The translations under genes and the position numbers were made by a program. Below the pieces are notes generated by a model. That model had not been told where the DNA came from. It worked only from the letters and a program-made list of their open reading frames with translations, and searched no databases. Below, one piece after another: positions 7,186 to 43,151 of a DNA stretch of 57,128 nucleotides. The stretch's first letter is position 1. Each line of letters begins with the position of its first letter. The stretch is from a virus, in the IMG/VR virus record IMGVR_UViG_3300032282_001405, positions 1 through 57,128 of that record. One strand, written 5' to 3'.

Positions 7186-8556
7186 TTATGCGAACTTGGT
7201 TTGAGAAGCCAACACAACGTATGTTGCACTTCCTGTTTTTTGGATTACATATGTGTAGCAATCAGTTGAGCTTGCATTTCCACTTGTAGGTGCTGTTCCA
7301 CCTTGCCACTTAGGAGTCACAGATGTGCCGTCAATCGTCACTGCTGAGTTGTAGTATGCAGTAGAACCTTGAGTCACCAAGAATGTTGCAGAGATGGATT
7401 CACCAGTTTGCATCAAGGTGTTCAGCGATGTACCGCTTGAACCACGGAAGTTCACTGTCCAGTTTGCACTTGCGTTGCTTGTGTAGAACAGAACAGATTG
7501 AGTCGTGATGTCGTAGTTGATTGTGCCAGTCGCCGCAGTTGCAGAGATGGTGTCCACCTCGGCTATGTTTGGAGTCTTGAGAGCAGACACAGACGATGAG
7601 CCTGCGGTCTGGAGCATCGAGGTTGCAGATGCAGTACCAACTCCGACAAGACCACTTGTATCTATGCGTAGTCTTTCGCTACCGCCTGTAAGCATTGTTA
7701 GTGGTAGATATGTGCCTGTTCCTGTAATTGATGCACGCAAAGATGATTCTGTTGCATTAGCTACAACCTGAGTAATAGAAGCATTTGTTGGGTCAGAATT
7801 ATTAACAACTTGAATATTTGCATTTACGGCACTTCCGTTAGGAATAAAAAAGACTCCTGTATTCCCATTAGTTGTGCTTGACTGAAATGCAACTCGGCTA
7901 ATAAATGTGGCATTACTAAAATCACCAGTAATACGATTACCTGTACCTGTAAATGTTAAGTTGCCTGAATCTGATAATGAAGTAAAAGTACCCGCCGCAG
8001 GAGTTGTCGCTCCTACAGTGCCATTGATGTTAATTGATGCAGTTCCAGTCAGGTTAGTAACTGTGCCGCTTGAAGGTGTGCCTAATACTCCTCCATTGAC
8101 CACAAAAGCGCCTGCGGTGCCTGTATTAACACCCAGAGCAGTCACAACGCCCGTACCTGTAGTTGTGGTGCTTGGAGCCGCACCAGCCCCGCCACCGATG
8201 ACTAATGCGCTTGCGGCTAATGCCGCGCTGGTCGCCCATGTTGACGCGCTTGAAAAATACGGGATACCACCGCTTGTTCCCGCAACGGTAAGTGCCAATG
8301 TTCCAGAAGTCGTAATCGGAGAACCAGCTACAGAAATCAATCCTCCAGTGAAACTCTGAGCAACGCTGGATACCGTTCCAGTAGCCGCCGCCGCCGCCGC
8401 AAGCAAAGTAACCACATTACTGCTGTTCTTGTAGTACAGCTTTCCATCTAAGGTGTTAATTGCAAGCTCACCTGCGACAAGATTTGCCGCAAGTGGGACA
8501 GCCGAGGCTGTTGTGCTGTAGTACAGCGATATTGGGGTGTAGCCTGTTGCAGACAT
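7186..8556 (-). CDS. Tail fibre protein
   Basis: A 456-aa low-complexity beta protein rich in Ser, Thr, Gly and Ala. The N-terminus (YTPISLYYSTTASAVP, NLVAGELAINTLDGKLYYK) is the fibre-attachment signature of many phage tail proteins. The C-terminal third (NWTVNFRGSS, QTGESISATFLV) resembles the shaft-and-tip pattern of repeated beta domains. Its start overlaps the stop of the next upstream fibre gene by one base (8556). It most likely forms a trimeric fibre or side fibre. Confidence 0.8.
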   Translation of the reverse strand: MSATGYTPISLYYSTTASAVPLAANLVAGELAINTLDGKLYYKNSSNVVTLLAAAAAATGTVSSVAQSFTGGLISVAGSPITTSGTLALTVAGTSGGIPYFSSASTWATSAALAASALVIGGGAGAAPSTTTTGTGVVTALGVNTGTAGAFVVNGGVLGTPSSGTVTNLTGTASININGTVGATTPAAGTFTSLSDSGNLTFTGTGNRITGDFSNATFISRVAFQSSTTNGNTGVFFIPNGSAVNANIQVVNNSDPTNASITQVVANATESSLRASITGTGTYLPLTMLTGGSERLRIDTSGLVGVGTASATSMLQTAGSSSVSALKTPNIAEVDTISATAATGTINYDITTQSVLFYTSNASANWTVNFRGSSGTSLNTLMQTGESISATFLVTQGSTAYYNSAVTIDGTSVTPKWQGGTAPTSGNASSTDCYTYVIQKTGSATYVVLASQTKFA

Positions 8557-31041: not shown

Positions 31042-31406
31042 TCTGCTTGGCGCTGTAGCTTGATGCTCTTGAGTAACTCACCAAACACGGTGACGTTGTT
31101 CTCAATCACCAGCGGCTTGTCATCATCCCCACTAATCTCCATGCGCGCCAGCTTGGGTACGTGGTACTCCACCACCGACTGGAACATGTCAAACGCCTTA
31201 GCTGGGTTTGGCGGCACGATGTATTTCTCTACTGCATCATCACCATCCATCTCCACCACCTTCACACCGTTGGCAACCTGATCAAGCCACTCAGTGAGCC
31301 TGTGAGCGTTTCCATCAACAAATGAGGCTATGGCCTGCCTAGCGTCCGCAGTGACCTTGTTAGGGCTTCCTGATGGCCTTCCTGCACCCTTCTTAGGTGA
31401 GTTCAT
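31038..31406 (-). CDS. terS: Terminase small subunit
   Basis: A 122-aa DNA-recognition subunit of the terminase. The basic N-terminus GAGRPSGSPNKVTADARQAI is the usual opening of TerS-like proteins of this type, followed by a helical domain (LTEWLDQVANG, NPAKAFDMFQSVVEYHVPKL) that would oligomerise. The stop overlaps the terL start (ATGA). Assignment rests on this opening, the size and the position. Confidence 0.85.
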   Translation of the reverse strand: MNSPKKGAGRPSGSPNKVTADARQAIASFVDGNAHRLTEWLDQVANGVKVVEMDGDDAVEKYIVPPNPAKAFDMFQSVVEYHVPKLARMEISGDDDKPLVIENNVTVFGELLKSIKLQRQAE

Positions 31407-39256: not shown

Positions 39257-39509
39257 TGTACTCCTTATTACCTTATTAACCCTTTCTTAATTCCTGTTTG
39301 ACTGCTTTCTGGTGGACAGACTCAGCCCTCCCACAGGGGGCTAAGCCTTCACATGTTTCTGCTAACTGGAGCCACATGACCCGACAGCCGTTCGATGTTA
39401 GGGCGCTATCTTCGCCACCCATGCCTCTATCTCAACATCTATCCCGTAGTAGAGGTGTCCCTGTATCGCTACCGCCAGTGCGCGTCCGATACAGCGGTCG
39501 TCAAAATGC
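39257..39509. ncRNA. Gene-free region with dense pairing: candidate structured RNA
   Basis: No convincing gene lies in about 440 bases (39170-39618). Nested and crossing pairings are abundant: GATGTT/AACATC (39394-39399 with 39434-39439) crosses CCTCTA/TAGAGG (39424-39429 with 39450-39455), a pseudoknot layout with a GGCG/CGCC hairpin inside. CTGTATCG/CGATACAG (39461-39468 with 39487-39494) overlaps ACCGC/GCGGT (39471-39475 with 39494-39498). AGCCC/GGGCT and CATGT/ACATG form other hairpins. On the minus strand the region is bracketed by two terminators. An 89-aa plus-strand frame (39298-39567) lacks a ribosome site. Strand, promoter and function are unproven. Confidence 0.5.
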
Positions 39510-40494: not shown

Positions 40495-42017
40495 TTGCTT
40501 ATCGCTTTCTTGTAAGCCATATTAAATTGTTTAATTTTGTTATGTACGTTGTTTGTAATTTCTACATTTGGCGCTGTGCTGAACTTCCATATCGGATCCT
40601 GACCCGTAATCTTTTTGTATAAGTGATACGCACGCCCTTGTTGGGTAGCGCTGGAACTGTGCTCCCTTGCGTACCTTACAACTTGATTCCAAAGGTGCTC
40701 AGCGTTATCGGCTAGTTTCTTTTTGTTCTTACCCTCACCAATAAAAATTTCCTGCATTTCGCCGGGCAACGCCATCTCCATTGCTTTCGCTGGCCTCTCA
40801 TACCCACACCCCATACAGCGCTTGTAAAAGGGTTTGTAGCCGCACTTGGGGCAACCCTTTGACTCTTCTATATCCTCATCTTTGCGGATCTTCTTATCAA
40901 GCTTCTCACCGTCGTCGAGCTTCTCCAGACCATTAAAAAACACGTCAGTAAAGTCTTCAGCGAAGCGAACAATGTTGCCACTGAAATCCAATAGGAAACA
41001 ATCCTTTTTGTTAGGATATGAGCGCAAGCCCCTGCCCCACATTTGGATGGCCGTAGACAACGACTTACGCAGGGGACGTGCATCGCATATACAACCCACG
41101 TCAGGCACGTCAAAACCCTTTGCAAGCGCCTCTACAGAAATCAAAACCCGTAGGTAACTATCTTCCTTGCGATACTCTTGTAACAGGTCTTCTCGCTCTT
41201 TGGCGTTGGTGTCTGAAGTAAAGACCGCGGCCATCACGCCTTGATCAATAAATTGTCTGGCTAACTCTTCGCAGTGCTTGATCGTTGCGCCAAACACAAT
41301 CGTCTTGCGGTTCTCAGCAAACTTCACCCACTCTTGGACAACGTCACCCACAATGCCCATCTCGCGCTCTTCAGCGGCCTTGTCTGTCCACTCACCGCCT
41401 GCGGTAGCCGCGCCTGTCATGTCGGGTTTTGTACAGGAGAAAATCCGCATAGGCACCAACACACCTGACTGGGTCAGATCGTGCATCGTGGTAGCGTTTA
41501 TGAGGTTTGTAAATATCTTTCCAAGACCATTGGAGAAGGGCGTAGCAGATAAGCCAATGATGGCCGCACCACTCTCCAATGCATAGTCAGTCCAGACCTT
41601 GTACTGCGTATGAGCTTCGTCTACCACCAGAACGTCCAACTGTGGCCAAAACTCCCGTTTAGCAATAGTCTGCGCCGACGCTATTTGCAACAGCATCTCT
41701 GGTTGCCGACGCCAATGGTTGGCTTGAATAATTCCGTGTTCTGTTAACCCGTAATCCTCTGCCACCGTAGAAGTTTGATTGATTAAAGTAGTACGGTCAC
41801 ACAGGAATACTGCACGCTTACCCTTTTGCATGGCTTCATTACAGATTCGTAATCCAAGGTAAGTCTTGCCAGCACCCGTGGGCGCCATGATCAATTGTCG
41901 TTTGTGGCCGTTTCTGAAACCCTGACGTAGGGCTTCATGCGCGGATAGTTGGAATGGTCGTGGTGTTGGAAAGGTTGTTCCATCATCACACCTACTTGGT
42001 GCTAGGACTGCATTCAT
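40491..42017 (-). CDS. Superfamily 2 DEAH-type helicase
   Basis: A 508-aa ATP-dependent DNA helicase. Motif I is APTGAGKT (residues 45-52), motif II DEAH (133-136), motif III GLSATPF (about 155-161) and motif VI QMWGRGLRS (about 345). Near residue 400 a zinc ribbon (CPKCGYK and CMGCGYE) follows the second RecA-like domain. The type-III restriction/RecG-like layout with zinc ribbon is common in phage replication operons. It is coupled to the ParB-like gene upstream and the TOPRIM gene downstream, forming a three-gene operon. Confidence 0.9.
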   Translation of the reverse strand: MNAVLAPSRCDDGTTFPTPRPFQLSAHEALRQGFRNGHKRQLIMAPTGAGKTYLGLRICNEAMQKGKRAVFLCDRTTLINQTSTVAEDYGLTEHGIIQANHWRRQPEMLLQIASAQTIAKREFWPQLDVLVVDEAHTQYKVWTDYALESGAAIIGLSATPFSNGLGKIFTNLINATTMHDLTQSGVLVPMRIFSCTKPDMTGAATAGGEWTDKAAEEREMGIVGDVVQEWVKFAENRKTIVFGATIKHCEELARQFIDQGVMAAVFTSDTNAKEREDLLQEYRKEDSYLRVLISVEALAKGFDVPDVGCICDARPLRKSLSTAIQMWGRGLRSYPNKKDCFLLDFSGNIVRFAEDFTDVFFNGLEKLDDGEKLDKKIRKDEDIEESKGCPKCGYKPFYKRCMGCGYERPAKAMEMALPGEMQEIFIGEGKNKKKLADNAEHLWNQVVRYAREHSSSATQQGRAYHLYKKITGQDPIWKFSTAPNVEITNNVHNKIKQFNMAYKKAISK

Positions 42018-42823
42018 TTTTGTGCTTTATAAAATTTATCGAGTTGTACTTGTTGCTTCTTGCAAAGCTTAATGCATTCGTTTTTCTCGCGCATGAGAGC
42101 CGCGTTACGGACTTCAAGTTGAACGTTTAAATATCTAAGTTTTTTGTTTTCCGCCCAGACTTCAGCCATCTTTTCGTCTGCGTCTAAAAAGTTAGCTACG
42201 GCCTGTAAATCTGCTTGTATAGACTTTTCGTTAGCCTCAAGCTCTTGGTCACTAGGTATGTTGCCGTCCAACATAGATGGCCTTGGCTCTGGTGGCTCAG
42301 TAATGGCTTTTCCTTGTTGTTCTTTGGGCAACTTGGCAATCTGGGCACCACGCTTAACGCTAATTGTGCCCTTGCGTACAGCATCAATAACCGCTTCACC
42401 ACCCTTGGTAAGAACTGCTTTAGCCTGCTCCATAGTTCTAGCGCTTACCTTAGCTTCTTCGGCTAATTCCTTGGTTGTTTTTAATTCCGCACCCGGTGCG
42501 GTATTAGAGGGTTTACCCACGGGTCGCCATAGTCGTATGGTGGCGTATGAAATTGCCTCCTGCCCCTTGGTTAGGTGCCTGCGATTACCGTTTAAGGCTC
42601 TCACAAAAGTAATTGGATCAATCCAATCATCAAGTTCAACCTCTGGGCATGGCATACCAAGCTCATTGGCAATGCTGTATCGATGCCAGCCATCAATCAC
42701 TTTGTCTTCAAAGATCACAATTGGCACCTGCACACCAATGTCTTCTATGCTGTCTCTCATCTCTTGCACTTTGTCTTCTGGTATGGGCGGAAATGCCTTA
42801 CTCAGTTCATGCTGTTCTCTCAT
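42014..42823 (-). CDS. ParB/Spo0J-like N-terminal nuclease-type protein
   Basis: A 269-aa protein. Residues about 10-75 (IPEDKVQEMRDSIEDIGVQV, IVIFEDKVIDGWHRYSIANE) match the ParB/RepB N-terminal fold (DGWHRY being the GxxR/H box). A middle helical segment (LTKGQEAISYATIRL, TTKELAEEAKVSARTMEQAK) resembles the HTH that binds parS-like DNA. The rest is coiled coil and acidic. It starts just after the leader RNA. Its coding sequence contains a copy of the 25-bp palindrome at 42482-42506. Could act in DNA loading or partition-like functions or in gene regulation. Confidence 0.75.
   Translation of the reverse strand: MREQHELSKAFPPIPEDKVQEMRDSIEDIGVQVPIVIFEDKVIDGWHRYSIANELGMPCPEVELDDWIDPITFVRALNGNRRHLTKGQEAISYATIRLWRPVGKPSNTAPGAELKTTKELAEEAKVSARTMEQAKAVLTKGGEAVIDAVRKGTISVKRGAQIAKLPKEQQGKAITEPPEPRPSMLDGNIPSDQELEANEKSIQADLQAVANFLDADEKMAEVWAENKKLRYLNVQLEVRNAALMREKNECIKLCKKQQVQLDKFYKAQK
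42482..42506. repeat. 25-bp palindrome, copy 2 (inside the parB-like gene)
   Basis: Arms CCGCACC and GGTGCGG around a central C, with outer TAAT and ATTA. It differs from the copy at 29589-29613 by two bases, the centre and one arm-flanking base. It is translated as part of the parB-like protein (TAPGAEL), so its conservation is constrained twice. Confidence 0.85.
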
Positions 42824-42837
42824 TTTTTTTCTCCAGT

Positions 42838-42939
42838 AAAAAAGCCCTAGGCGAGACTCTCATTCTTGTGGAATGTTGGCGGACACCGAGTAGGTGCAGA
42901 GTCCCGTCTAGGGCTTACTCTAAAACGCCGCCAAGCGTT
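42838..42939 (-). ncRNA. Structured leader RNA with pseudoknot and terminator ahead of the replication operon
   Basis: On the minus strand, starting about 6 nt after the -10 at 42945, the RNA has a 5' hairpin AACGC-TTGGCG-GCGTT (42924-42939), then a long helix (AAGCCCTAG with CTAGGGCTT, then CGG with TCG, then GACTCT with AGAGTC; one mismatch), closing a three-way junction with hairpins CACC/GGTG and CATTC/GAATG. The 5' loop TTGGCG is complementary to CGCCAA in the junction strand (42876-42881), a likely pseudoknot. The helix ends in six Us, then CTGGAG and the parB-like ATG. It can act as an attenuator or a small RNA. An alternative pairing GGAC/GTCC would break the inner helix. Confidence 0.75.
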
Positions 42940-42974
42940 CAAAAACTATATCACGAAAACAAATCTGGCCGCAA
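42924..42974 (-). promoter_or_regulatory. Promoter plus 5' hairpin for the leader RNA/replication operon
   Basis: Minus strand: TTGCGG (-35, 42969-42974), 18-nt spacer, extended -10 TG-A-TATAGT (42945-42950), followed 6 nt later by AACGC-TTGGCG-GCGTT (42924-42939) and TTAGAG. Same layout as the other cassettes but here the hairpin leads into the structured leader rather than a Shine-Dalgarno. The -35 lies within the 3' end of the regulator gene. Confidence 0.7.
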
Positions 42975-43151
42975 TTCTTTTTTAGTTATTAAGCCTTGTG
43001 TTGCATCTTCAATCTTCACACACAGCAAAGGAGACGGACGCTTACGCCCCGTCATGATCAAGAAGAGCCACGTAGGTGTGATGCCAAGGTGCTCGGCCAT
43101 CTCCAGCTTTGCCCCCCTTGGCTCTGTAGAAAAGTATTCCGTCAGAGTCAT
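42951..43151 (-). CDS. YdaS/Cro-like HTH regulator
   Basis: A 66-aa protein that likely represses the divergent early promoters. From the ATG at 43151 (AGGA about 10 nt upstream) it reads MTLTEYFSTEPRGAKLEMAE followed by HLGITPTWLFLIMTGRKRPS, and ends with CVKIEDATQGLITKKELRPD. The HTH pattern and the ALxVxxxxxSxIxxG-like core with a VT(R/K)xELRPD ending are the hallmark of YdaS/Cro antitoxin-type phage regulators. An in-frame upstream extension to 43289 adds residues that do not fit the family. Candidate operators lie upstream. Confidence 0.85.
   Translation of the reverse strand: MTLTEYFSTEPRGAKLEMAEHLGITPTWLFLIMTGRKRPSPLLCVKIEDATQGLITKKELRPDLFS

What the first reader, a model, noticed from the sequence alone, without database searches (positions are those of the whole stretch)
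42838..42974. Three-way-junction leader RNA with loop-junction pseudoknot and terminator before the replication operon
Between an extended -10 promoter and the parB-like start is a compact RNA: 5' hairpin, long nearly continuous 19-position helix, two apical hairpins and a U6 end. The 5' hairpin loop TTGGCG pairs exactly with CGCCAA in the junction, and an alternative GGAC/GTCC pairing would break the inner helix. An RNA that must either terminate or read into primase and helicase genes recalls phage P4 (CI RNA terminating the alpha operon) and P1/P7 c4 control. This could be a new attenuator, riboswitch-like switch or free small RNA.
Basis: partly seen in the sequence, partly recalled or inferred. 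Interest (0 to 1): 0.85.

Follow-up and report, generated by a model that had tools for sequence, protein, structure and literature searches.

The report
Self-targeting C4-like phage RNA family
A roughly 105-base RNA gene next to phage replication genes turns out to be a widespread, previously uncatalogued family that packs an antisense RNA, its own target sequence and a transcription stop signal into one molecule, which looks like a compact version of the RNA 'immunity' switches of phages P1 and P4.

Summary
The structure is real and lies on the minus strand (42940-42838). It has a 5' hairpin, an 18-position closing helix ending in U6, two apical hairpins, and the reported loop-junction pairing UUGGCG/CGCCAA. 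Homologues form a family absent from Rfam: about 170 places, 129 distinct sequences, in viral contigs and Burkholderiales genomes. Covariation is overwhelming (37 of 42 pairs change on both sides) and covers both tertiary pairings. A -10 box sits at fixed spacing in nearly all members, so this is its own transcription unit. In related replication loci the same slot holds either this RNA (21 of 80) or an int-alpA-type RNA (53 of 80), never both. The order a (hairpin loop), b, then b' (apical loop), a' (junction), and its spacing, match the targets and antisense arms of the P1 C4 and P4 CI RNAs. Here target, antisense and terminator are fused, and b/b' is the fastest-evolving part. Best reading: a new compact variant of C4/CI-type phage control RNA. 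The trans-acting termination or immunity mechanism is inferred, not shown.

The parts
42945..42950 (-). -10 promoter hexamer TATAGT (extended, TGA-TATAGT)
   Evidence: Sequence; a TAtaaT-like hexamer 10-15 nt before the P1 loop-closing C is near universal in homologues (T 137/142, A 138/142, final T 139/142)
42924..42939 (-). P1: 5' hairpin AACGC-UUGGCG-GCGUU
   Evidence: fold; 97.8% of cells paired, 4 of 5 pairs change on both sides
42929..42934 (-). Element a (UUGGCG), P1 loop; pairs with a' (PK1)
   Evidence: Complementary in 26/26 distinct sequences found without requiring it; two covarying types UUGGCG/CGCCAA and UUGGUC/GACCAA
42916..42920 (-). Element b (GAGUA), between P1 and P2; pairs with b' (PK2)
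   Evidence: Present in 73/73 representatives, mean 5.27 vs 3.65 +- 0.09 with shuffled partners
42898..42915 (-). P2 5' strand (18 positions)
   Evidence: 18/18 pairs covary; conserved single mid-helix mismatch in 64/72 (here A42907.C42851)
42884..42896 (-). P3: first apical hairpin CACC-UACUC-GGUG
42888..42892 (-). Element b' (UACUC), P3 loop, hypervariable
   Evidence: 41 distinct loops in 127 RNAs; fastest-evolving part together with b
42876..42881 (-). Element a' (CGCCAA), junction strand between P3 and P4
42861..42875 (-). P4: second apical hairpin (GNRA loop, often GAAA or GCAA, in many homologues)
42843..42860 (-). P2 3' strand
42838..42843 (-). U6 tract of an intrinsic terminator formed by P2
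   Evidence: Sequence; U-tract also present in homologues found by protein search rather than by the pattern
42014..42823 (-). Downstream ParB-like gene, start codon 14 nt after the U-tract
42951..43151 (-). Upstream YdaS/Cro-like gene; its TGA stop overlaps the extended -10
   Evidence: PF15943 E 1.2e-9

Best explanation
This is a new, compact variant of the phage C4/CI class of control RNAs, fused into a single transcription unit of about 105 nt. SHOWN by sequence and covariation: it has its own promoter and an intrinsic terminator; its 5' half carries two short target elements (a in a hairpin loop, then b); and its 3' half carries the matching antisense arms (b' in an apical loop, then a' in the junction) inside the arms of the terminator helix. 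LIKELY: its order and spacing correspond to P1 a1-b1 ... C4(b', a') and P4 a-b ... CI(b', a'), so it does the same job with all parts merged. INFERRED: short terminated RNAs accumulate with phage dosage and pair through a/a' and b/b' with other copies, including the nascent leader. This favours termination or blocks expression of the following early genes (usually replication genes), giving dosage control and, in prophages, superinfection immunity. The fast-diverging, always complementary b/b' pair would set specificity. Whether a/a' and b/b' pair within one molecule, between molecules, or alternately is not decided.
For: Both tertiary pairings covary. A promoter lies at fixed spacing. In P1, a1 TTGACAG 48255, b1 GTTAGTG 48269, b' 48380 and a' 48393 give spacings of 14 and 13; P4 gives 16 and 15; this family's medians are 14 and 12. 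In P4 element a also sits in a hairpin loop upstream. C4 and P4 CI are scored by the same Rfam model, and P4 has an isrK-type terminator RNA carrying the upstream targets. In related replication loci the slot holds this RNA (21/80) or an int-alpA-type RNA (53/80), 0 with both; the int-alpA-type RNAs have a covarying loop complement downstream (6.3 vs 4.2 +- 0.3). b/b' is hypervariable (difference rate 0.30, against 0.09 for P3 and 0.21 for the P1 stem); 20 of 41 pairs of RNAs otherwise identical in P2, P3 stem and P4/P2 3' end differ in b, and in 19 of these the b' loop differs too. One member precedes a Rha/KilAC antirepressor gene. C4 a'/b' set specificity, and 4 nt separate P1 from P7 (PMC5320573).
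Against: The Rfam C4 model does not hit this RNA (up to E = 10), and model R1 hits neither P1 nor P4 c4/CI. Direct sequence similarity to P1 c4 is weak (46 of 2000 shuffles score as well). The tetraloop hairpin is on the other side of the b'-a' pair, so common descent is unproven. No second target set exists in the flanks, unlike P1/P4. The window phage has no detected integrase or S24 repressor, so lysogenic immunity may not apply to it. No expression data.
Confidence: 0.62

Rival explanations
1. A free-standing structural sRNA whose two pseudoknots are purely intramolecular; it binds a phage or host protein (decoy, chaperone target, RNA polymerase or defence factor) and does not act by base pairing.
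For: Almost every nucleotide is paired and only G50, U71 and C72 are invariant or nearly invariant unpaired positions. It has its own promoter and terminator, variable neighbours, and no complementary target in the flanks.
Against: b/b' evolves faster than the structural helices. The a-b-b'-a' layout matches P1/P4. The slot is exchanged with an antisense-like RNA.
Confidence: 0.22
2. A cis-acting attenuator or riboswitch in the leader of the downstream gene, with the pseudoknots sensing a ligand or protein and the P2 terminator as the output.
For: The start codon of the next gene usually lies 8-16 nt after the U-tract. The terminator is part of the element.
Against: The one alternative pairing tested is not conserved, there is no conserved unpaired pocket, and downstream genes belong to unrelated families.
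Confidence: 0.12
3. Only a strong terminator with decorations separating cro-like from replication genes, comparable in place to lambda tR1.
For: RNA-lacking relatives have a small hairpin plus U run in the same place.
Against: A terminator alone does not need P1, two covarying pseudoknots, a fixed 18-position helix or its own promoter.
Confidence: 0.04

Closest known systems
C4 antisense RNA of phages P1/P7 and CI RNA of satellite P4 (Rfam RF01695), with c4-a1b1 (RF03163)
   Same: Long closing helix with two apical hairpins; antisense b' in an apical loop followed by a' in the junction strand; complementary a then b upstream with nearly the same spacing; lies before early or replication/antirepressor genes; the arms vary.
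   Different: Here target a-b directly abuts the antisense body in one RNA of about 105 nt; the closing helix itself is the terminator; no a2-b2 copy downstream; the tetraloop hairpin follows a' instead of preceding b'; the Rfam model does not match; P1 C4 is cut from a longer transcript (PMC5320573).
IsrK (Rfam RF01394; Gifsy-1, and the upstream element in P4)
   Same: Own promoter, short terminated RNA, readthrough into the next phage gene; in P4 it is hairpin loop a, then b, then terminator.
   Different: IsrK has no antisense arms inside its terminator hairpin; its model does not hit this RNA.
int-alpA RNA (Rfam RF02996)
   Same: Occupies the same slot in sister phages; three-way-junction RNA with a promoter just upstream.
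   Different: No 5' target hairpin; complementary target lies downstream in the leader; no U-tract at the helix end; different sequence.
Betaproteobacteria-1 RNA (Rfam RF02932)
   Same: Also in this phage operon, after the primase gene, and in L008.
   Different: Unrelated sequence and structure.

Membership tests
C4 antisense RNA (RF01695) | Match to the Rfam covariance model | tested here: not met
   No C4 match for 42700-43100 up to E = 10; the same model finds P1 c4 and P4 CI
C4 antisense RNA (RF01695) | Antisense arms b' (apical loop) then a' (junction), complementary to target a then b at conserved spacing | tested here: met
C4 antisense RNA (RF01695) | Hairpin order: tetraloop hairpin, then b' hairpin, inside the closing helix | tested here: not met
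   Here the b' hairpin and a' come before the tetraloop hairpin
C4 antisense RNA (RF01695) | A second target set downstream near the start of the regulated gene | tested here: not met
   Flank complementarity equals shuffled control, 6.53 vs 6.52
C4 antisense RNA (RF01695) | Acts in trans to block expression or cause termination; immunity specificity | not testable with these tools
   Needs experiments
isrK (RF01394) | Rfam model match | tested here: not met
int-alpA (RF02996) | Rfam model match | tested here: not met
   no int-alpA match for this RNA; it does match the alternative occupant of the slot
Riboswitch or attenuator with alternative pairing | Conserved mutually exclusive anti-terminator pairing | tested here: not met
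   GGAC/GTCC not conserved and shows no covariation; other alternatives not systematically tested

The most novel reading that the evidence does not exclude
A phage RNA that is antisense, target and terminator in one: copies recognise each other as self or non-self through the rapidly diversifying b/b' kissing pair, forming dimers or capturing nascent copies, so each phage lineage runs its own RNA incompatibility group controlling replication-gene transcription, in phages with and without lysogeny.
Probability: 0.4. Interest if true: 0.88.

Novelty: new variant of a known kind. Interest (0 to 1): 0.78.

Why it matters
P1 C4 and P4 CI are classic RNA-based immunity systems but are usually seen as spread over a long leader with processing. 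A widespread family that compresses target, antisense and terminator into one RNA, swaps places with int-alpA RNAs, and diversifies fastest in its recognition arms would show RNA-based self/non-self control to be common in freshwater betaproteobacterial phages. It would also suggest a function for int-alpA RNA and provide a compact two-pseudoknot model for testing RNA-RNA incompatibility and termination control.

Tried and rejected
Rfam at gathering and relaxed thresholds: nothing for this RNA. blastn of the window RNA against named phages: none; only one Manatee Spring phage genome, apparently deposited twice (MW202462, MW202544; both 34712 bases), matches another member. Alternative GGAC/GTCC pairing: rejected. 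Antisense target in up to 400 nt of flank: none beyond chance. A second a-b target elsewhere in the window: 3 pattern hits, two of them the element itself on either strand and one at 31047 with unrelated context. Whether the full 18-position P2 and intramolecular PK2 are sterically compatible: a chain-length bound was inconclusive. PK1 statistics from the pattern scans are biased because the pattern required PK1 and U6, so PK1 was re-tested on protein- and model-derived hits; PK2 was never selected for. 14 structurally poor pattern hits were discarded as chance. Searches were failed calls.

Full report
Location and observation. The element is on the minus strand of an IMG/VR virus record, between a Cro/YdaS-like gene (43151-42951, PF15943) and a ParB-like gene (42823-42014) followed by helicase and primase-like genes. 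The transcript predicted from the extended -10 TGATATAGT starts at about 42940 and ends in U6 at 42838. It folds at -45.5 kcal/mol for 113 nt, against -28.9 for shuffles (z -4.6). The three-way junction and the UUGGCG/CGCCAA complementarity are as reported.

A new family. No Rfam family matches. After filtering there were 170 places, 129 unique sequences and 75 representatives below 92% identity. Hosts or carriers named in records are Polynucleobacter and uncultured Burkholderiales/Betaproteobacteria. In the Polynucleobacter chromosome the RNA lies between a divergent HTH regulator gene and DnaD-like plus DnaC-like replication genes, as in a prophage control region (gene names judged by eye).

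Structure. On an unfitted MAFFT alignment of 72 sequences, 93.7% of cells pair (shuffles 69.1%), 37 of 42 pairs change on both sides, and the covariation score is 0.648 against 0.191. P2 is 18 positions in every row with exactly one mismatch, at one of two neighbouring mid-helix positions, in 64 of 72. PK2, never used for retrieval, is present in 73 of 73 representatives, with a mean of 5.27 against 3.65 +- 0.09 for shuffled partners. PK1 was part of the retrieval pattern, so it was re-tested on 26 distinct sequences found without it: 26 of 26 pair, in two covarying types.

Transcription unit. A TAtaaT-like hexamer 10-15 nt upstream of the P1 loop-closing C is near universal, and the helix plus U-run is a canonical intrinsic terminator. 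Upstream genes are most often Cro-like. Downstream genes are DUF1376 or DnaD-like replication proteins, ParB-like proteins, NUMOD4-HNH endonucleases, small unknown proteins and, in L166, a Rha/KilAC antirepressor. The start codon usually follows the U-tract by 8-16 nt. This fits a self-contained RNA gene with leaky readthrough, as described experimentally for Gifsy-1 IsrK (PMC4825925).

The slot. Among 80 loci collected by a DnaD-like replication protein, 21 have this RNA and 53 have another structured RNA at the same place; none has both, and 4 of the 6 blanks are truncated upstream. The alternative RNA scores as, or close to, int-alpA RNA (RF02996) and has a loop whose complement lies downstream and covaries (6.3 vs 4.2 +- 0.3). 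One contig, L124, carries both in tandem with an HNH gene between them. Within the window's own helicase lineage, L036 has the int-alpA type in place of this RNA, and several relatives have only a tiny hairpin plus U run.

Relation to C4/CI. In P1 (AF234172) the order is a1 48255, b1 48269, b' 48380, a' 48393; in P4 a (in an upstream hairpin loop), b, b', a'. Spacings a-b are 14 and 16, and b'-a' 13 and 15; this family has medians of 14 and 12. P4 CI and P1 c4 both match RF01695, and the P4 upstream targets lie in an isrK-type RNA ending in a terminator. So this RNA can be read as an isrK-type leader whose terminator hairpin contains the C4-type antisense arms. This is an analogy of parts: the C4 model does not match, the hairpin order differs, sequence similarity to P1 c4 is weak (46 of 2000 shuffles as good), and no downstream target was found.

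Specificity. Between RNAs with nearly identical P2, element b differs at 0.30 per site (0.53 and 0.51 at its two outer positions), while P3 differs at 0.09 and the P1 stem at 0.21; the P2 rate (0.06) is low by selection of the pairs. Of 41 pairs of RNAs identical in P2, P3 stem and P4/P2 3' end, 20 differ in b, and in 19 of these the b' loop differs too. In C4, a' and b' determine target specificity, and a 4-nt change separates P1 from P7 (PMC5320573). Fast but compensated change at b/b' is what recognition between copies would produce, though neutral drift of a tolerant helix is not excluded.

Mechanism and limits. Shown: the family, its helices, both tertiary pairings, promoter and terminator signals, and slot exchange. 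Inferred: that b/b' and a/a' act between molecules, that this changes termination or expression of the next gene, and that the result is dosage control or immunity. Covariation cannot separate intra- from intermolecular pairing, and the geometric bound was inconclusive. The window phage shows no integrase or S24 repressor, so replication control may be the more general role.

Noticed in passing
window 39379-39496 (-): Betaproteobacteria-1 RNA (RF02932, 103 bits) just after the primase gene in the same operon; also in L008 at 7902-8019. Its function is unknown to me.
   Followed up: partly
L219-L298 upstream of the replication gene; L036 2118-2204; L178: int-alpA-type RNAs (RF02996), mostly scoring near or just below the Rfam threshold, are common in front of phage replication genes and have a covarying complement of one loop in the downstream leader. 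This suggests a C4-like antisense role for this family.
   Followed up: yes
L124 3720-4385: The new RNA, an HNH-like gene and an int-alpA-type RNA stand in tandem before a DnaD-like gene, which may be a snapshot of slot exchange by insertion.
   Followed up: partly
L216 and L217 1501-1601: Diverged members in two larger Burkholderiaceae-family genomes keep PK1 and PK2 but lack the U-tract and precede a gene resembling an HNH/AP2-type endonuclease (judged by eye from the sequence).
   Followed up: no
A1 columns 40/41 with 115/116 (window A42907.C42851): Exactly one mismatch (mostly A.G or A.C) in the middle of the 18-position helix in 64 of 72 sequences; reason unknown (RNase III avoidance, a kink, or a boundary of a switching lower stem).
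   Followed up: partly
L017, L019, L024, L029, L033, L038, L039 between cro-like and parB-like genes: Relatives without the RNA have a tiny hairpin followed by a U run at the same place, like a minimal attenuator.
   Followed up: partly
L015 8086-8557 and L016 8348-8866: Short tRNA arrays downstream of the replication genes in related phages; none in the window.
   Followed up: no
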